A DNA stretch of 64,000 bases, from assembly GCF_900188275.1 (NCBI RefSeq), contig NZ_FZNY01000001.1, forward strand, positions 248,001 through 312,000, read 5' to 3'. Below are positions 48,227 through 56,744 of this stretch, one piece after another (position 1 is the stretch's first letter; the number at the start of each line of letters is the position of its first letter). This DNA comes from Dokdonia pacifica. Lineage in GTDB: Bacteria; Bacteroidota; Bacteroidia; Flavobacteriales; Flavobacteriaceae. Below the pieces are notes generated by a model. It ran no database searches and was not told where the DNA came from. It worked only from the letters and a program-made list of their open reading frames with translations. Made by a program: the position numbers and the translations under genes.

Positions 48227-50635
48227 ATGAGGAGTATACTACTTATAAGCACTTTACTAATTACCTCCCTTGTTTTTTCACAAAGAGGCACCATTACTGG
48301 AACATTAGAAGAAGAAGGTGGGCCATTACCTGGTGCAACTATTATGGTAAAAGGAACCTTAAACGGCACTCAAACTGACTTTGATGGTAACTACTCGATA
48401 GAATGTAATGTAGGAGATATTCTAGTGATCGATTACATAGGATTTGTCACAAGAGAAATTGTAGTAACAGCAGCTATGTTTGGCGGTGATGGCATTGCGT
48501 ATAGTGCTCCTAAAGTAGAAGTAAAACCTATACAAAATAGTGCGTATGCTAATGCTCTGAAAAAACAAAAAACAGGTAATCTCTTTCCTAATATTGCAAG
48601 TACACCTTATACCTACACAAAAGAAACTGGGTATCGTTCGTTCTCAAGAATACAAAATATCAACACCAAAAAAAATGTCGTATACCTCACCTATTTCAAA
48701 CCAGACATTTATATAGATGGAAGTTTAAATAACAAACTAGCTATTAAAAATATTCAATCTGGTAATTTACCTAATAATCAGAATACACTTTTTCAAACGG
48801 TGTTTAGAAATAATCATGATGCACGTTTTTCAATAGTCTCTGAAAAATTTCAAAGTACCATCAATGCATCATTATCCACAGGGCGCAATCTATATAACAG
48901 TAATAGTACTACAGAAAAAGCTGTAAGCGGATTATTTGGTTACGAAAGTAAAATCCCTTTAACTATTAGAGTAAACGCATCCTCACATATAGATAACCTT
49001 GCAAACATAAATGGATTCCAAAACCTATTGATTCAGAATCAATTTATTGAACCTACAAATGCGCTAGATACAACAGCATCACTTTTAAATACCACTAGAA
49101 GTAAAAAAACACAAAATCATTTTGATTCTTCTTTGACGGCTTCATATTCGATCATAGATGAAATAGATTTAGAATCTCAATCCAGCATTACGATAGATAC
49201 CGCTAGAGAGCAGTATGAAGCTCAAGCTGGCACCCTAGGTTTTGAAAATGCATATACCTCAACAAAAGAAATAACCACACATCAATTTCAATCGAATCTT
49301 TCTGCAAACACAGATTTTTATATCTCAGATTGGATTGGAGTAGATACCAGTACAAATGGGAAATATATATTTAACCGTCTTGATTATAATTTTATAGAAC
49401 GCAATGGCGATATACCACTTCGTATTCCAAATGATCTCACAAAACAAGTATTCGAATTAAAAAACAATGCGACTATAGACTATGATAACTTTCTATTTCT
49501 TACACTGTCTAATGTAAGCTACACAAGTTCTATTCAAGAAAGTGATTGGTGGATCCCACAAGCTATGCTATCATTTGTACCTACAGCAGCTTTTTATGAC
49601 ATACGATCTAATTTCTTTAACTACGCAAATCTCTCTGTACGATATGGAGAAACTGTAAAAGATAGCCCTTTACTATATCGTAACTATAGCCATAATGCAC
49701 TTGCAATCACTCCTGAAAATGTAACTCAATTTTCAAATAGAATAGACTTATTTTTTAATCCTGATCTTCAATTAGAACAAGGGAAAAGTTTTGAAGTTGC
49801 AGCATCTTTTAAATTTATAAGACATCGATTGTTACTTGATATCGCTTATACAGAAGAGGAGAATGAAAAAGGCGTGTTTCCCATATTAGAAGGAGGTACA
49901 TTTAATCTAAAAAATAGCGCAAACACCTCATTTCATGGCTTAGACATAGAACTCACGTCTGACCACATTAAAAGCTATGATGACAACTTTAATTGGAGTA
50001 CAAGTGTTTCGCTTTCGCGAAAGCGTATAAAAGTATCTAAGCTCTTAATAGATCAACCAAGAATACCTGTTTCTGGGTTTTCTACAATCAACACAAACTT
50101 AATTGAAGGAGCATCTCCAGGAGTTATCGTAGGGACTGCATTTGCAAGAGGTGAAGACAATACCATTCTCACAGATGAAAATGGAAACGCATTGGTAGCA
50201 GATCAACCGCAAATTATAGGAGATCCCATTCCTGATTATAATATAGGACTTTCAAATACTTTTTCTTATAAACGATTTGAATTAGGCTTTACGCTAGACT
50301 ATCAAAAAGGAGGAGACATTTGGAACGGAACCCAAAAAGCCATAGAAGGTTTTGCAGGTATCGATGAGAGCTTTATTGAAGATGGGACTTATCTAAATCT
50401 TAAGTCAATTACTGCCTCTTATGAATTTATTGATAAAAACAGTAACCGCACACACGACCCATTTATTACGTCATTAAAATTAAGTGTATACACTCATAAT
50501 ATCGCTACTTGGAGTGCTTTTAAAGGTGCTACTCCATACAGTACATTTTTTGATGGCGCAAGTAGTCAAGGATTCAACTTTTTTAATACGCCCATCACTT
50601 CTCAAACGGGTATCCAAATCATTGCAAAAATATAA
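48227..50635 (+). CDS. SusC-like outer-membrane beta-barrel protein without a recognisable plug
   Basis: The 802-residue protein has a signal peptide (MRSILLISTLLITSLVFS, then Gln) and a carboxypeptidase-regulatory-like domain (about 22-85: GTITGTLEEEGGPLPGATIM and DFDGNYSIE ... VIDYIGF), as SusC/RagA proteins do. After it the plug is missing: there is no RGxxS, VDGVP or NGVIxVxT text. Residues about 150-190 (DIYIDGSLNNK) might be a remnant. The rest looks like the SusC barrel with alternating strands, ending in FINTPITSQTG-like aromatic text and a final short strand. The next gene, 4 nt downstream, carries a full plug. A CGCGAAAGC palindrome encodes LSRKR in a strand. Confidence 0.85.
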   Translation: MRSILLISTLLITSLVFSQRGTITGTLEEEGGPLPGATIMVKGTLNGTQTDFDGNYSIECNVGDILVIDYIGFVTREIVVTAAMFGGDGIAYSAPKVEVKPIQNSAYANALKKQKTGNLFPNIASTPYTYTKETGYRSFSRIQNINTKKNVVYLTYFKPDIYIDGSLNNKLAIKNIQSGNLPNNQNTLFQTVFRNNHDARFSIVSEKFQSTINASLSTGRNLYNSNSTTEKAVSGLFGYESKIPLTIRVNASSHIDNLANINGFQNLLIQNQFIEPTNALDTTASLLNTTRSKKTQNHFDSSLTASYSIIDEIDLESQSSITIDTAREQYEAQAGTLGFENAYTSTKEITTHQFQSNLSANTDFYISDWIGVDTSTNGKYIFNRLDYNFIERNGDIPLRIPNDLTKQVFELKNNATIDYDNFLFLTLSNVSYTSSIQESDWWIPQAMLSFVPTAAFYDIRSNFFNYANLSVRYGETVKDSPLLYRNYSHNALAITPENVTQFSNRIDLFFNPDLQLEQGKSFEVAASFKFIRHRLLLDIAYTEEENEKGVFPILEGGTFNLKNSANTSFHGLDIELTSDHIKSYDDNFNWSTSVSLSRKRIKVSKLLIDQPRIPVSGFSTINTNLIEGASPGVIVGTAFARGEDNTILTDENGNALVADQPQIIGDPIPDYNIGLSNTFSYKRFELGFTLDYQKGGDIWNGTQKAIEGFAGIDESFIEDGTYLNLKSITASYEFIDKNSNRTHDPFITSLKLSVYTHNIATWSAFKGATPYSTFFDGASSQGFNFFNTPITSQTGIQIIAKI
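50008..50027. repeat. CGCGAAAGC palindrome, copy 14 (in barrel gene)
   Basis: The sequence ttcgctttcgcgaaagcgta carries one full arm and most of the other. It encodes SLSRKR in the barrel. Confidence 0.95.
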
Positions 50636-50639
50636 ACTC

Positions 50640-53600
50640 ATGATAAAGAAATATGTATATACCTTATTGTTGATATGCGTAAGTGCTATAACATTAGGTC
50701 AAGAAGAGCTATTAGGTATAAGTGAAGCTGATTATATTGAAAAAACGTATACTCATACAGATCGTCCTTTCTATTTTCCTGGAGAAACAATTTGGTTTAA
50801 AACCTATATAACCAATGCGCATCAAGAAATAACATCCTTAAGCGATATTGTTTATGTAGAGCTTCTATCTCCAGAAGGAAATAGCATTCAAAAAGGAGAA
50901 TACCGTATTCAAAATGGGTATGCCTATGGCCAATTTAGTCTTAATGCTGATTGGGTAGGTGGTATATACACTATAAAGGCATATACCAAATGGATGCTTA
51001 ATAATGGAAATGCTTCTTTATTCTCCAAAAAAATTACTGTTCAAAAGATAGTAGAGCCTCGCTTGCAGATGAAATTTGACTTTAAAAAAGAAGCCTACGG
51101 ACCAGGAAGTAATGTGCAAGCTACAGTCGTATTAAAAGACCTAGAAAACAATGTGCTAAAAAACAAAAAGTGTTCTTACACATTACGTATAGGAGGAAAA
51201 ACACTCTCAAAAAATGAGGTCATCTCTGATGATGAAGGTAAATTAGCTATAGCATTTTTATTACCTGAAAATTTAAATACAACAGATGCTATTGTAAATG
51301 TACTCATACCTCACTTGGGGAATACAGAATCTATTTCAAGAAGTATTCCTGTAACATTAGATAATATTGATCTACAATTTCTTCCAGAAAGCGGCGTGCT
51401 TTTAGAAGGCTATAAAAATACCATTGCTTTTAAAGCTACAAATGCATATGGGAAACCAGCAGATATACGTGGGGTTATTAAAAATACACAAGGAGAAATT
51501 GTGGCTAATTTTAATAGTTTTCATAATGGCATGGGAAGCTTTGAACTTACCCCTAAAAATGGAGCGCATTACACAGCTCATATCTATGAACCTTTTACAT
51601 CTAAAATCATCTATACTATTCCTGAAGCGCAAAACCAAGGAATTAGCATTCACCTTGATCATATAGAGAATGAACTCGCAACTTTTACGGTCACAAGTTC
51701 CAAAAATCAAAAAGTAGAATGGTGTGCGAGTGATGTAAAACAAACATTATATAATGATCAAATTCAACTTAAAAAAGGAACACAACAACTTGTCGTAAAT
51801 ATAAATGACTTCCCACAGGGTATTACAAAATTTACAATCCAAACTATAAATGGTCGCTTTATTGCAGAACGTCTTGCTTTTTTAAATTATAATAGAAAGC
51901 TATCTATTGAGATCACTACAGATAAAACATCTTATAGCACTCGCGAGAAAGTTCAAGTAGCTATTCTCACAAAAGATCAAAATGGCAAACCCGTTCCTTC
52001 CAATTTATCACTTGCTGTTGTAGACAATAAGCTTATGAGTTTTGCAGATGACAGACAAGACAACATAGCCTCTTACTTACTTATGTCTAGCGAACTAAAA
52101 GGGAGTATTTACAAGCCTAATTTTTACTTTAATCCAAAAGAAGACAAAGCAGAAAAGGCTTTAGATTATGTATTACTCACGCATGGTTGGAGAAGTTATT
52201 TAACCGAAAAAATAGGAGATGTTCACACAGCACAATACCCACCTGAAAATTTCTCTATTCAAACTGGCGTTGTTATCAACCAAAAGAATGAGCCTACTCC
52301 GGCCAAGCTATTGTTATTTGACACTTATGGTGATGATGTATTACCATTTAACACCAATAATAAAGGAGAATTTTTCTTTAAAATGGTAGATGGTGTACAT
52401 TATACATTACTTGCATATAATGACGCAGGAGACAAGTTGACTATTATATCAGGAAGTGTACATAGTACCAATAATTGGGAAGAATTAAGAAGGCAAGAAG
52501 AAAAAAATAAAAAACAAGAAGAAATCGCCACAAAAAAACTAGCAAAGCCTACGGCAAAACCGATAACTAAGAAAGTTGTCAAAAAAGATAAAACTGCTTC
52601 CAAAAATGTCTCTACTATTTTACAATCAGACAATCAACTGGATGAAGTTGTTGTTACTGCACAAGGAATACGAAGAGAGAAAAAAGCACTTGGATATGCC
52701 GTAAGTGAAGTTTCGGGTGAAGATGTAGGAACCGAAGGGGATGTAGGGCGAATTTTATCTGGAAAAGCAAGTGGTGTAGCAATTACAAATCAAAGCGGTT
52801 CTTCAGGTAATGCAACTAATGTGGTGATAAGAGGGTACAACTCTATAAGTGGTAATAATCAAGCTCTCTTTATAGTTGATGGTGTTCCCTACACAGAAAG
52901 CATTGATAGATCATTAAATCTTGACCCTAATAACATAGAGTCTATAAACATTTTAAAAGGATTAGCAGCAACAACATTATATGGTACCGCAGGCAGAAAT
53001 GGCGTTATTATTGTAAACACAAAAAACAATAGATACTATTCCTCATATGGGAAAAAGAGACTTAATAATTCTAAGTATCGTAATTATGTAATACAGAAGT
53101 TCTCTTCTCAAAATTATAGATACTATACCCCAAGTAAGAAGTTTTATGTTCCTGTATATGACAACACGATTCAACTCTCTGAAGAGCGTACCGATTTTAG
53201 ACAAACTATCTATTGGAATCCTATAGTACAAACAGGTAATGATGGGAAAGCTACTTTACATTATTACAATTCTGATGCGGTTACTTCTTTTAACATTATT
53301 GCAGAAGGCATCAGTGCCTCTGGAGAAGTAGGGCGTAAAGAATCATCTTATCATGTTATAAATCCTATTACGGTTGATTATAAAACACCGGCATATATGT
53401 CTGTAGGTGATGAAGTCCTTTTGAATGTATCTATACAAAATAACACAGAGGAGCTTATTACTGGTATTTTTTCTATAGACTTACCTAAAGAGATACAGTT
53501 TTCAAAAAATTATGTTCCTCAAGAAATAACAATAGCACCAAAAAGTTTTACCCCAGTATATATCCCAATTCGTACGATTCAAAAATCTGAAGAAGCAATC

Positions 53601-55259
53601 ATAAAAGCACTCTTTACAAATGACACATACACAGATTTTTTAACTACATCTACTACCATTGTAAGCCCTTATTTTCCTACAAAAGCATCATTATCTGGAG
53701 TTAAAAATGAATCTTTTGAATTCTCTTTAGATCATGTAGTTCCAGGTAGCATGGTAGCAGAATTTAATTTATACACAGATGTTGTGGGTGAAGTTATGGA
53801 CGGAATATCCTCTATTATACGCAAGCCGTATGGATGCTTTGAACAAACTTCTTCTAGTACATATCCTAATGTCATGGTTTTAAAATACCTAAGAGAAAGT
53901 GGCAAATCAAATCCTGAAATAGAAGCAAAAGCATTAGACTTTATAAAGCAAGGATATAAAAGGCTTATCAGTTTTGAAACGAAAAAAGGAGGATTTGAAT
54001 GGTTTGGACATACACCTCCACACGAAACATTAACCGCCTTTGGGATTCTTGAGTTTACAGAAATGAAAGAAGTATATCCAGATGTAAATGAGAAAATGAT
54101 CATGCGTACGGTAGACTGGTTAATGAGTAGAAGAGATGGAAAAGGAGGTTTCCATAAGAGTAAAAAAGGATACGATAGCTTTGCTAGTTCTCCTCAAGAT
54201 GTGGCAAATGCTTATATCGTATATGCCTTAAGTGAAGCTGGTATTAAAGTAGATATCCAGAAAGAATATAGCACTGCTTATCAAGACGCGTTAGAAAGCA
54301 ATGACAGTTATAAAATGGCGCTTATGGCTTGTGCTGCATTTAATCTCATTCAACAAGAAGATGCACAACAACTTTTAAGCAAAATACAAGCAAACATTGA
54401 AACTTTTGGATTTGATGACCTTCCAGTTACAAATACGATTACTAGATCTTATGGTAAGGATAAGAAAACAGAAACACTGGCCTTTACGATCCTAGCCTTA
54501 TTAAAACAGCAACAACAAGATTTAATTCAAATAAACAAAGCCGTAGAGCAATTAGTAAGTAATAGAAAAAATGGAGGGTTTGGAGCAACTCAAGCAACCG
54601 CAATGTCTCTTAAAGCATTAATTGCATATACAAAGACACAAAAAGCAAAAATAATAGCAGAAGATGATCTCATAACCATTACTATTAATGGAAAATCCTA
54701 CAAGTCTAAACTAAAGGCTTCTTCCAATGGAAAAATAACTATCGCAGATCTTGAAAAAGATTTTACGCGTGGCACTAATACAATTGATGTTATTTTTTCT
54801 GATTCAAAAAAACAATTTCCATATAGTCTTACTTTAGATTGGGATAGTACATTACCAGAATCTGCAGAAAATCGTCCCTTAGAAATAGCTACTACAGTTA
54901 TAGACCGAGCGTATACAATTGGACAAACTATAAGACATAGCACTACTATAAAAAATAAAAAAGATAATGGGCTTGGAATGGTCACTGCTATTATTGGAAT
55001 TCCATCAGGAGCATCTGCACAACCATGGCAACTTAAAGAGTTAATAGAAAAGGATCATGTTGCTTTTTATGAAGTATATGACAACTATGTGGTCTTGTAT
55101 TGGCGTTCATTTAAAGAGCTTGAAGAAAAAACAATTCATTTAGACTTAAAAGCAGAAGTCGCGGGGTCATATACCGCGCCTGCGAGCACAGTATATCTAT
55201 ATTATGGAGAAGAGTATAAACACTGGATAAAAGGAACACACATTGAAATAGAAAAATAA
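50640..55259 (+). CDS. Alpha-2-macroglobulin-like thioester protein with embedded SusC-type plug domain
   Basis: I start at the ATG at 50640 (MIKKYVYTLLLICVSAITLG, then Gln), 4 nt after the barrel stop; an upstream in-frame ATG would lie inside the barrel gene. The 1539-residue protein has MG2-type text (THTDRPFYFPGETIWFKTYI, about 30-53), further MG domains to about 520 (DYVLLTHGWRSY), a carboxypeptidase-regulatory-like domain and a Lys-rich linker. Residues about 663-797 are a TonB-dependent-receptor plug (LDEVVVTAQGIRREKKALGY, NVVIRGYNSISG, ALFIVDGVPY, RNGVIIVNTK). Then come an A2M domain (FRQTIYWNPIVQTGNDGKA) and a thioester domain with GCFEQ (C1066, Q1069). Thioester macroglobulins trap proteases or attach covalently. 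The secretion signal is not a lipobox. Confidence 0.92.
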   Translation: MIKKYVYTLLLICVSAITLGQEELLGISEADYIEKTYTHTDRPFYFPGETIWFKTYITNAHQEITSLSDIVYVELLSPEGNSIQKGEYRIQNGYAYGQFSLNADWVGGIYTIKAYTKWMLNNGNASLFSKKITVQKIVEPRLQMKFDFKKEAYGPGSNVQATVVLKDLENNVLKNKKCSYTLRIGGKTLSKNEVISDDEGKLAIAFLLPENLNTTDAIVNVLIPHLGNTESISRSIPVTLDNIDLQFLPESGVLLEGYKNTIAFKATNAYGKPADIRGVIKNTQGEIVANFNSFHNGMGSFELTPKNGAHYTAHIYEPFTSKIIYTIPEAQNQGISIHLDHIENELATFTVTSSKNQKVEWCASDVKQTLYNDQIQLKKGTQQLVVNINDFPQGITKFTIQTINGRFIAERLAFLNYNRKLSIEITTDKTSYSTREKVQVAILTKDQNGKPVPSNLSLAVVDNKLMSFADDRQDNIASYLLMSSELKGSIYKPNFYFNPKEDKAEKALDYVLLTHGWRSYLTEKIGDVHTAQYPPENFSIQTGVVINQKNEPTPAKLLLFDTYGDDVLPFNTNNKGEFFFKMVDGVHYTLLAYNDAGDKLTIISGSVHSTNNWEELRRQEEKNKKQEEIATKKLAKPTAKPITKKVVKKDKTASKNVSTILQSDNQLDEVVVTAQGIRREKKALGYAVSEVSGEDVGTEGDVGRILSGKASGVAITNQSGSSGNATNVVIRGYNSISGNNQALFIVDGVPYTESIDRSLNLDPNNIESINILKGLAATTLYGTAGRNGVIIVNTKNNRYYSSYGKKRLNNSKYRNYVIQKFSSQNYRYYTPSKKFYVPVYDNTIQLSEERTDFRQTIYWNPIVQTGNDGKATLHYYNSDAVTSFNIIAEGISASGEVGRKESSYHVINPITVDYKTPAYMSVGDEVLLNVSIQNNTEELITGIFSIDLPKEIQFSKNYVPQEITIAPKSFTPVYIPIRTIQKSEEAIIKALFTNDTYTDFLTTSTTIVSPYFPTKASLSGVKNESFEFSLDHVVPGSMVAEFNLYTDVVGEVMDGISSIIRKPYGCFEQTSSSTYPNVMVLKYLRESGKSNPEIEAKALDFIKQGYKRLISFETKKGGFEWFGHTPPHETLTAFGILEFTEMKEVYPDVNEKMIMRTVDWLMSRRDGKGGFHKSKKGYDSFASSPQDVANAYIVYALSEAGIKVDIQKEYSTAYQDALESNDSYKMALMACAAFNLIQQEDAQQLLSKIQANIETFGFDDLPVTNTITRSYGKDKKTETLAFTILALLKQQQQDLIQINKAVEQLVSNRKNGGFGATQATAMSLKALIAYTKTQKAKIIAEDDLITITINGKSYKSKLKASSNGKITIADLEKDFTRGTNTIDVIFSDSKKQFPYSLTLDWDSTLPESAENRPLEIATTVIDRAYTIGQTIRHSTTIKNKKDNGLGMVTAIIGIPSGASAQPWQLKELIEKDHVAFYEVYDNYVVLYWRSFKELEEKTIHLDLKAEVAGSYTAPASTVYLYYGEEYKHWIKGTHIEIEK
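52629..53030 (+). other. TonB-dependent receptor plug domain inside the macroglobulin gene
   Basis: This stretch, residues about 663-797, begins with DEVVVTAQG (the TonB-box-like start of SusC plugs), continues with GRILSGKASGVAITNQSGSS and RGYNSISGNNQALFIVDGVP, and ends NGVIIVNTK. It is a complete plug with no barrel of its own in this protein. Confidence 0.88.
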
Positions 55260-55520: not shown

Positions 55521-56744
55521 ATGGATATGAAAAAACAACTATTTTTAATTGCAGTAATGATCACACTAACTACAGTGGGTCAAACATTTACAAATTATAC
55601 TGAAGCAGATGGACTTTTTCCAAGCTTAGTAAATGAAATCATAGAAGATGATGATGGTGATATCTGGTGTGTAGGATGGCTAGATGCCACTAGCCCAGGT
55701 ATTGCAAGATTTAATGGTGAAAGCTGGGAGCTTTTCGGAAATGATGATGATGGACCACATAGTAATACATTTATTAGTCTATTACAAGACAAAACTGGGG
55801 CATATTGGTTTGGAAGTGTCCCTTCTGAAGGAAATCAAAATGGTGCTAGTAGGTTTAATGGTTTTGCTTGGGCATACTTTCCTGAAAATGTTTTTGCAGG
55901 TACTGCTATAGAAGATATCGCAGAAGGTAGCTTTAACGATTTGTGGTTTGCTACAAATGGAGGGCTCACAAAATTTGATAGCAATATTTTTACAAGCTAT
56001 ACTATAGAAGATGGACTTCCTAGTAATAGCATCACATCAGTTATCCAAGATAAAAATGGCGATATATGGGTAACTACATTTGATGGTGGTGCCTCAAAGT
56101 TTGATGGAACTACATTTACAAATTATACGGTAGACGACGGACTTGCATCTAACGAGCTCACAAGAGTCTTTGAAGATAGAAGCGGAAATATATGGTTTGC
56201 GTCTGGCTTTAGTAATGCAGGTTTAACTCGTTTTGACGGTAACTCTTTCACTATTTTCACAACTGCAGATGGGCTTGCCGCAAACAATGTACGAGAAATT
56301 GCACAAGATGACGATGATAATTTATGGTTTGCAGGAAGTGCTGGTGTGACAAGATTTGATGGCGAAAACTGGTTAATATTAAATGAAAGCAATGGACTTC
56401 TAAGTAATTTGGTAAGAGGCATTGAACCAGATCGAGATGGAAATATCTGGTTTGGAACTTTAGAAGGTGTGAGTGTTTTAGAAGCCGGATCACTATCTGC
56501 TGGTGAGGAAAATCTAACTACATTTTCTGTTTTTCCAAACCCGGTGGAAGATCAACTTATGATACAAACCCCAAATACATCTGAAATATTAAAAGTAAAC
56601 CTATATAGTGTACTGGGTGAGTTAATTGCATCACAAGACAATACCGCAAACGTAGACATGTCTACCCTTTCCTCAGGAATTTATTTTGCTGAAATCTTAG
56701 GAACCAATCAACAATCGCAGACTATAAAAGTTATTAAAAAATAA
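55521..56744 (+). CDS. Secreted two-component-regulator-type propeller protein with type IX sorting domain
   Basis: The 407-residue protein has a signal peptide (KKQLFLIAVMITLTTVG, then Gln) and about seven propeller repeats of the kind found in hybrid sensor kinases (GDIWCVGW, GAYWFGSV, NDLWFATN, GDIWVTTF, GNIWFASG, DNLWFAGS, GNIWFGTL, each with a following TRFDG- or KFDG-like text). The last 75 residues are a type IX C-terminal sorting domain (FSVFPNPVEDQLMIQTP ... TLSSGIYFAEI ... IKVIKK). It is probably secreted via the SprA translocon. A second Met (55527) could be the start. It has no kinase part. Confidence 0.87.
   Translation: MDMKKQLFLIAVMITLTTVGQTFTNYTEADGLFPSLVNEIIEDDDGDIWCVGWLDATSPGIARFNGESWELFGNDDDGPHSNTFISLLQDKTGAYWFGSVPSEGNQNGASRFNGFAWAYFPENVFAGTAIEDIAEGSFNDLWFATNGGLTKFDSNIFTSYTIEDGLPSNSITSVIQDKNGDIWVTTFDGGASKFDGTTFTNYTVDDGLASNELTRVFEDRSGNIWFASGFSNAGLTRFDGNSFTIFTTADGLAANNVREIAQDDDDNLWFAGSAGVTRFDGENWLILNESNGLLSNLVRGIEPDRDGNIWFGTLEGVSVLEAGSLSAGEENLTTFSVFPNPVEDQLMIQTPNTSEILKVNLYSVLGELIASQDNTANVDMSTLSSGIYFAEILGTNQQSQTIKVIKK

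What the first reader, a model, noticed from the sequence alone, without database searches (positions are those of the whole stretch)
48227..55259. Plug-less SusC-like barrel paired with a thioester macroglobulin that carries the missing plug
Seen: the first gene has a signal peptide, a carboxypeptidase-regulatory-like domain and a barrel, but no recognisable plug. The second, 4 nt downstream, has macroglobulin domains, a GCFEQ thioester motif, and in its middle a full SusC-type plug (DEVVVTAQG to NGVIIVNTK). Known: SusC plugs normally sit in the barrel of the same chain; bacterial thioester macroglobulins are protease traps in the periplasm. Inferred: the plug is supplied in trans, so that the barrel is closed or opened by a protein which can bond covalently to a target. 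This could be an outer-membrane defence or a route for surface display of the macroglobulin.
Basis: partly seen in the sequence, partly recalled or inferred. Interest (0 to 1): 0.85.

Follow-up and report, generated by a model that had tools for sequence, protein, structure and literature searches.

The report
Macroglobulin carrying an outer-membrane barrel's plug
In many Bacteroidota, an outer-membrane channel that has lost its built-in plug sits in a two-gene operon with a covalent protein trap that carries the plug instead, which suggests a new kind of plugged, possibly self-triggering trap at the cell surface.

Summary
Gene 1 (48227-50635) encodes a SusC-type barrel with NTE domain but no plug; gene 2 (50640-55259) a thioester macroglobulin holding a SusC-type plug with Ton box. 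They match non-overlapping stretches of one SusC model. The barrel is predicted with 22 strands and no plug. The pairing is conserved: a barrel without plug-profile hit lies directly upstream in 76 of 76 assessable loci (of 80) and in 13 of 13 carriers among 299 family genomes. In a class-wide sample drawn with a query lacking the plug, 3 of 4 macroglobulins with a SusC-type plug had the barrel, against 0 of 56 assessable ones without. The plug lies where relatives have a bait-like linker. Best reading: a split TonB-dependent receptor whose trans plug stands in the bait region and docks the trap at the outer membrane. Binding, trigger and cargo are inferred. Against: the barrel does not track the plug beyond shared ancestry; one plug-bearing macroglobulin has no visible barrel. 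No matching paper was found in the open library searched.

The parts
48227..50635 (+). Plug-less SusC-type barrel gene (802 aa)
48290..48472 (+). NTE (CarboxypepD_reg-like) domain of the barrel protein, residues 22-82
   Evidence: PF13715 24-82 and PF13620 22-80
48473..48706 (+). linker, residues 83-160, where an ordinary SusC carries Ton box and plug; partly low-confidence in the model (93-122)
48707..50629 (+). 22-strand barrel, residues 161-801 (I counted strands of 10 or more residues in the DSSP list)
50640..55259 (+). Thioester macroglobulin with embedded plug (1539 aa from ATG 50640)
50745..50996 (+). MG2 domain, residues 36-119
   Evidence: PF01835
52473..52634 (+). Lys-rich disordered linker before the plug, residues 612-665; start of the bait-region position
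   Evidence: pLDDT below 50 over residues 612-687; relatives
52641..52655 (+). Ton box DEVVV, residues 668-672 (compare DEVVVTG of Bt1763)
   Evidence: PMC7782687 passages
52632..53030 (+). SusC-type plug, residues 665-797
   Evidence: PF07715, TIGR04056, TIGR04057
53205..53459 (+). A2M (PF00207) domain, residues 856-940, after the plug and a second linker
53772..54629 (+). Thioester (TED) domain, residues 1045-1330
   Evidence: PF07678
53832..53846 (+). GCFEQ thioester motif, residues 1065-1069
54657..55256 (+). C-terminal macroglobulin part, residues 1340-1539
   Evidence: alignment; bMG10 only weak (E 0.017)

Best explanation
It is a split TonB-dependent receptor combined with a covalent trap. 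The first protein is a SusC-type barrel with its NTE domain but no plug. The second is a secreted thioester macroglobulin in which the bait-region position holds a SusC plug with its Ton box. [quoted passage not shown] Pulling on the Ton box by TonB, displacement of the plug by cargo, or cutting of the linkers beside the plug untethers the bait segment, which exposes the thioester and couples the trap to whatever is coming through the pore (an incoming protease, bacteriocin or other protein). Shown: domain content, thioester motif, conserved two-gene unit, co-occurrence of plug and plug-less barrel, position of the plug. Inferred: insertion in this barrel, periplasmic orientation, the trigger, the cargo.
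For: Non-overlapping coverage of one SusC model by the two proteins: 64-205 and 311-860. Predicted 22-strand barrel without plug, mean pLDDT 87; ranks 1-22 in the PDB are SusC-type entries. Barrel directly upstream in 76 of 76 assessable loci of 80, none with a plug-profile hit (in L150 the barrel's start is off the contig, in L155 the barrel frame is broken in two); distance -1 to 6 nt in 58 of 76. Of 299 family genomes 13 carry the macroglobulin (in one, G079, the contig ends before the TED), and all 13 have the barrel adjacent. Class sample drawn with a query lacking the plug: SusC-type plug present 3 of 4 with barrel, absent 0 of 56 (Fisher p 1.2e-4, phylogeny ignored). Split barrels separate from 25 sampled ordinary SusCs by one label change (24 of the 25 are SusCs of genomes of the window's family). 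Plug Arg of the IRG motif in 77 of 77 paired macroglobulins, 10 of 20 in the TED-less group. In 55 of 62 class-sample genes the stretch at the plug's place is 61-149 residues shorter, and in 3 of 4 printed it is a Lys/Arg/Ala-rich linker. In E. coli A2M untethering of the bait region exposes the thioester (PMC4498604, passages).
Against: Distance matrices of 80 pairs: barrel and plug are not linked beyond shared ancestry (partial r 0.09, 114 of 2000 permutations as high; 0.03 without the Dokdonia clade), while the barrel tracks the N-terminal MG domains better (partial r 0.45) and the A2M part (0.26). Two of three acidic barrel positions that are E in 23-24 of 24 ordinary SusCs are relaxed in split barrels: position 517 E in 58 of 76, position 523 E or D in 38 of 76; position 573 is E or D in 74 of 76. 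One macroglobulin with SusC-type plug (L242) shows no barrel in 2.7 kb upstream and no split barrel was found in its fragmented genome. Other plug types occur in macroglobulins without a barrel seen beside them (L196, and L241 with only 1 kb upstream). The complex was not modelled, and the plug itself is modelled with low to medium confidence. No cargo, regulation or expression evidence.
Confidence: 0.65

Rival explanations
1. The plug in the macroglobulin is a module for ordinary SusC barrels or for TonB itself (a decoy or tether), and the neighbouring plug-less barrel is closed by something else or serves as an open or self-gated channel.
For: Plugs of macroglobulins mix with ordinary SusC plugs in the tree (6 label changes over 98 tips); the window plug is sister (support 0.86) to and 81% identical with the plug of an own-genome SusC that is followed by a SusD gene. 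No plug-barrel co-evolution signal. One plug-bearing macroglobulin without visible barrel. TED-less macroglobulins keep degenerate plugs; none of the 16 loci L078-L093 shows a SusC barrel.
Against: Barrel adjacent in 76 of 76 loci and 13 of 13 family genomes and in none of 56 relatives without a SusC-type plug. An unplugged 22-strand pore would be expected to leak (inference).
Confidence: 0.15
2. Nutrient or protein import: the macroglobulin is a periplasmic receiving domain that covalently holds large cargo drawn through the barrel by TonB, for feeding and not for defence.
For: Ton box positions kept: 669 E or D in 74 of 77, 670 V or I in 76 of 77, 671 V or I in 76 of 77; barrel is SusC-like.
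Against: No SusD among the three flanking genes scanned in the window and no conserved third gene: the most frequent further neighbour family occurs in 21 of 76 loci (relatives were not scanned with a SusD profile). A one-shot covalent trap is wasteful for feeding (inference).
Confidence: 0.1
3. Export or surface display: the barrel is a secretion port that passes the macroglobulin, the plug acting as its substrate signal.
For: A TonB-dependent transporter (Oar) is required for secretion of the protease PopC in Myxococcus (PMC6434023, listing and start of abstract only; also named in a passage of PMC11658791).
Against: Both plug ends face the periplasm in a SusC; the plug is flanked by domains on both sides; conservation of plug and Ton box fits insertion better (inference).
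Confidence: 0.06
4. Artefact: frameshift, assembly error or decaying SusC gene beside an unrelated macroglobulin.
For: The window barrel is shorter than most (802 aa) and lacks two segments that relatives keep; one relative, L155, does have a broken barrel frame.
Against: Same arrangement in all assessable loci of several orders, thioester motif in 80 of 80.
Confidence: 0.01

Closest known systems
SusC/RagA-type TonB-dependent transporters (e.g. Bt1763, RagA)
   Same: NTE domain, 22-strand barrel, plug sequence with Ton box; ranks 1-22 in the fold search. In Bt1763 the plug can leave the barrel in vitro (PMC7782687, passages).
   Different: Barrel and plug are on two chains; no SusD beside it in the window; plug sits inside a macroglobulin.
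Bacterial alpha-2-macroglobulins (E. coli ECAM/YfhM, Salmonella SaA2M)
   Same: MG domains, TED with thioester motif; structural matches 4ziq, 5a42, 4u48.
   Different: [quoted passage not shown] here no lipobox in the window protein by eye (2 of 80 relatives have a weak pattern), a plug at the bait position and an outer-membrane barrel partner.
TED-less macroglobulins of about 820-930 aa with degenerate plug (Bacteroidota)
   Same: MG N-terminal domains followed by a plug-like stretch and the start of the A2M domain.
   Different: No TED; plug Arg in 10 of 20 rows (9 of 18 without the two cut rows); no SusC barrel in the 16 loci L078-L093. L130's lies beside a complete pair.
SprA with its Plug protein (type IX secretion); FhuA plug and barrel expressed separately (both recalled, from no call)
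   Same: Large outer-membrane barrel closed by a separate polypeptide.
   Different: Those plugs are not parts of a macroglobulin; the FhuA case is engineered.

Membership tests
SusC/TonB-dependent transporter (barrel protein) | 22-strand outer-membrane barrel of SusC type | tested here: met
SusC/TonB-dependent transporter (barrel protein) | plug domain in the same chain | tested here: not met
   no PF07715 in the window protein nor in any of the 10 barrels of A2; 0 of 76 relatives by plug profile
SusC/TonB-dependent transporter (barrel protein) | Ton box in the same chain | tested here: not met
   strict pattern in 1 of 76 barrels (L167, residue 80, end of the NTE by position) against 56 of 80 macroglobulins; the window barrel's REIVVTA at the end of the NTE lines up by eye with the last NTE strand of an ordinary SusC, before its true Ton box
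SusC/TonB-dependent transporter (barrel protein) | SusD partner gene next to it | tested here: not met
   three flanking genes of the window scanned, no SusD; no third gene conserved; relatives not scanned with a SusD profile
SusC/TonB-dependent transporter (barrel protein) | TonB-driven transport | not testable with these tools
   needs experiment
Bacterial alpha-2-macroglobulin (gene 2) | MG2 and A2M domains and TED | tested here: met
   10 of 10 members of A1
Bacterial alpha-2-macroglobulin (gene 2) | CxEQ thioester motif | tested here: met
   80 of 80 loci
Bacterial alpha-2-macroglobulin (gene 2) | disordered bait region before the A2M domain | tested here: inconclusive
   plug plus a disordered linker at that place
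Bacterial alpha-2-macroglobulin (gene 2) | covalent trapping of a protease | not testable with these tools
   needs experiment

The most novel reading that the evidence does not exclude
The plug is the bait: an outer-membrane pore is closed by the bait region of a thioester macroglobulin, so that any event that pulls or cuts the plug (TonB force, an incoming toxin or protease) both opens the pore and arms a covalent trap directly beneath it. TonB-system parts seem to have been recruited to this bait position more than once: SusC-type plugs, a plug of another type, and TonB C-terminal domains.
Probability: 0.33. Interest if true: 0.93.

Novelty: categorically new. Interest (0 to 1): 0.82.

Why it matters
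If true, it is a natural split TonB-dependent receptor whose gate belongs to a complement-like covalent trap. It would link two fields: outer-membrane transport (how a plug moves and what TonB pulls on, now testable because gate and pore are separate chains) and bacterial macroglobulins (what triggers them and where they act). It would also suggest a function for plug domains in bacterial macroglobulins and a possible outer-membrane defence of Bacteroidota against proteases or bacteriocins.

Tried and rejected
Plug hidden in the barrel protein: rejected. Plug-barrel co-evolution by distance matrices: no signal beyond shared ancestry; plug exchange with ordinary SusC genes may be the reason, which is inference. 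A conserved third gene: none; the best neighbour family is in 21 of 76 loci. Orphan split barrels: none among the matches at E up to 1e-150 in 299 family genomes, but that threshold also missed the window's own barrel and that of G922, so a divergent orphan could be missed. Split barrel in 20 genomes with relatives of the macroglobulin (19 without SusC-type plug, and G846): the matches all have open frames of 1032 aa or more and start at model position 156 or later, as in ordinary SusCs. Structure of the complex: not possible with the single-chain tool and length limit. Published description: searches found 0 papers, one search found 13 (noise: 'susc' also matches 'susceptible'), one search found one unrelated paper; two searches listed 15 of 88 and 15 of 836 papers, none with a fitting title. 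A published case of FhuA plug and barrel expressed apart was sought and not found; it is recalled only. A first plug tree had dropped the own-genome SusC by my length filter; it was rebuilt with it.

Rows dropped before counts: 4 of 80 loci (L123, L135, L162, L164) begin at or inside the macroglobulin and were not counted for adjacency. The structure alignments hold 66 of 76 barrels (near-duplicates, the cut L150, the broken L155 and a few others left out) and 54 of 80 macroglobulins. In the class sample 1 of 63 loci (L246) held only a fragment and 4 of 62 had under 2 kb upstream. 'Without SusC-type plug' there rests on a profile built from 8 ordinary plugs; of those 60 genes only L189, L196, L238, L241, L243 and L204 were scanned with Pfam. 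The TED-less group of 20 includes L034, a paired protein cut by a contig end, and a cut row of L089 without the plug stretch. The plug tree left out 7 of 25 ordinary SusCs and 1 of 81 macroglobulins. The locus sets overlap in part (for example L156 and G922 share sequence).

Full report
What is there. Two genes on the + strand are 4 nt apart. Gene 1 (48227-50635, 802 aa) has a signal peptide-like start and an NTE (CarboxypepD_reg) domain at 24-82; Pfam finds no plug at E up to 1 and the SusC model TIGR04056 matches only from position 311 on. Gene 2 (50640-55259, 1539 aa) has MG2, A2M and TED domains, GCFEQ, and at 654-796 the stretch 64-205 of the same SusC model, that is Ton box (DEVVV) and plug. 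In Bt1763 the Ton box is DEVVVTG and the plug can leave the barrel in vitro (PMC7782687, passages read).

Structure. The barrel modelled with 66 relatives has mean pLDDT 87.1; I count 22 long strands, an NTE, a low-confidence linker at 93-122 and no plug. Ranks 1-22 in the PDB are SusC-type entries (TM to query 0.58-0.67), ahead of siderophore and heme receptors. The macroglobulin fragment 21-1055 has mean pLDDT 79.2, with a stretch below 50 at residues 612-687 and a plug of low to medium confidence; it matches complement C3, CD109 and bacterial A2Ms. The complex could not be modelled.

Conservation of the pair. In 149 genomes of the family, one per genus, 8 (own included) had a barrel match below 1e-50; in all 8 the macroglobulin follows directly. 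A scan of GTDB species genomes with the macroglobulin alignment found 515 relatives and kept the best 80 loci. 76 have upstream sequence, and all 76 have a SusC barrel ORF directly upstream without plug-profile hit. In L150 the barrel's start is off the contig, so its plug-less state is not seen; in L155 the barrel frame is broken into two overlapping ORFs. Distances are -1 to 6 nt in 58 of 76; 11 are longer overlaps, which the mechanical choice of the farthest start may explain, and 7 are gaps of 12-66 nt. Record titles name Flavobacteriaceae, Chitinophaga, Niastella, Saprospiraceae, Xanthocytophaga, Desertivirga, Labilibacter and Bacteroidales, among others. The ranking favours proteins like the query, so two less biased samples were made. 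(a) 299 family genomes: 13 hold the macroglobulin (in G079 the contig ends before the TED); all 13 have the barrel adjacent. (b) 395 class genomes searched with the A2M-TED part only: 65 matched; besides own and G127, 63 loci were fetched, 62 with a whole or nearly whole gene. A SusC-type plug is in 2: L240, with barrel, and L242, without a barrel in 2.7 kb upstream. Of the 60 others, 56 have 2 kb or more upstream and none has a barrel. With own and G127 this is 3 of 4 against 0 of 56 (Fisher p 1.2e-4, ignoring phylogeny). A relative from another group without plug-profile hit, L077, also has no barrel.

Where the plug sits. In 55 of the 62 class-sample genes the stretch between the N-terminal part and the A2M part is 61-149 residues shorter than in the window. 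Of four such stretches printed, three are Lys/Arg/Ala-rich linkers as expected for a bait region, and the fourth (L244) is Ser/Tyr-rich; L077 has a longer linker of similar kind. That these are disordered is my reading of their composition. In the pair, linkers and plug lie at the same place. For E. coli A2M, cutting the disordered bait region untethers it, and this exposes the thioester (PMC4498604, passages). I infer that plug displacement or linker cutting could do the same here.

Constraint on the plug. The Arg of the IRG motif is present in 77 of 77 paired macroglobulins, but in 10 of 20 rows of the TED-less group with degenerate plugs (9 of 18 without two cut rows). Ton box positions 669-671 are E/D, V/I, V/I in 74, 76 and 76 of 77. 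In the barrel, the E of the GxE motif (573) is E or D in 74 of 76 split barrels and E in 24 of 24 ordinary SusCs; two other acidic positions, E in 24 and 23 of 24 ordinary SusCs, are relaxed (517: E in 58 of 76; 523: E or D in 38 of 76). A review describes conserved plug-barrel salt bridges to E522 and E571 in FhuA (PMC11658791, passages); that the GxE position is E571 is my recollection of the FhuA sequence, not a test.

Evolution. Split barrels are separated from 25 ordinary SusCs (24 from genomes of the window's family, 1 from L145) by one label change, whereas plugs of macroglobulins and of ordinary SusCs mix: 6 label changes over 98 tips, 18 of them ordinary (5 over 93 in a first tree that lacked the own-genome SusC). 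The window plug is sister to that of an own-genome SusC (support 0.86), 81% identical over 134 residues (72% over a longer gapped alignment); that SusC has NTE and plug and is followed by a SusD gene. Identity to the plugs of the 80 loci has a median of 42%, at most 68%. So plugs seem to be replaced from ordinary SusC genes from time to time, which suggests they still work as plugs. Distance matrices of 80 pairs show no plug-barrel link beyond shared ancestry (partial r 0.09; 114 of 2000 permutations as high; 0.03 without the Dokdonia clade), while the barrel tracks the N-terminal MG part (0.45) and the A2M part (0.26). This is evidence against tight plug specificity; a barrel-MG contact is another way to read it.

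Context. No third gene is conserved; the most frequent neighbour family is in 21 of 76 loci. The pair is patchy: 13 of 299 family genomes.

Wider pattern. In five class relatives scanned with Pfam because of a long stretch at this place, four hold a TonB C-terminal domain there (L189, L238, L241, L243; PF03544 above cut-off) and two a plug of another type (L241 E 7.7e-10; L196 marginal, E 5e-5). No SusC barrel was seen by them, L241 having only 1 kb upstream.

Function. Most likely the plug closes its neighbour barrel in trans and holds the trap at the inner face of the outer membrane; the thioester then couples to something that comes through or cuts the plug. Cargo and trigger are open. Novelty: no relevant paper in the open library searched; most papers of subscription journals and all bioRxiv preprints are not held, so a description elsewhere is possible. 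I rate it categorically new as a system, while both proteins are built from known families.

Noticed in passing
L189:4715-9682, L238:792-5933, L241:762-5765, L243:789-5471: Thioester macroglobulins of other Bacteroidia carry a TonB C-terminal domain (PF03544, above Pfam cut-off) at the bait-region position; L241 also has a plug of another type.
   Followed up: partly
L041:4573-11049 (own genome C17): A second, 2158-aa macroglobulin of the same genome without a GCxEQ motif carries a CarboxypepD_reg domain followed by a short plug remnant (VVITAQGIKREKKALGYAVS by eye; profile hit 1296-1327; no Pfam Plug hit) before its A2M domain.
   Followed up: partly
window 52632-53030 and L250:7060-10305: The plug of the window macroglobulin is sister to and 81% identical with the plug of an own-genome SusC, closer than to the plugs of the 80 related macroglobulins (at most 68%): likely plug replacement.
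   Followed up: yes
L078-L093, L130:1982-4783, L251: Macroglobulins of about 820-930 aa without TED that keep degenerate plugs or plug-like stretches; no SusC barrel was seen in the 16 loci L078-L093.
   Followed up: partly
L242:1-4403: Macroglobulin with a good SusC-type plug but no barrel in 2.7 kb upstream (an MlaE permease gene is next); the contig ends inside its TED, so the downstream side is unseen.
   Followed up: partly
window 48227-50635: Barrels of the Dokdonia-like clade (window, L094, L112, L156) are 780-806 aa; the window barrel lacks two segments (after the linker and near residue 706) that relatives in the alignment keep.
   Followed up: partly
L155:5367-7897: The barrel gene of this Niastella locus is broken into two overlapping reading frames.
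   Followed up: no
window 55521-56744: Next gene downstream: Reg_prop propeller repeats with a type IX secretion sorting tail; weak similarity to PorZ.
   Followed up: no
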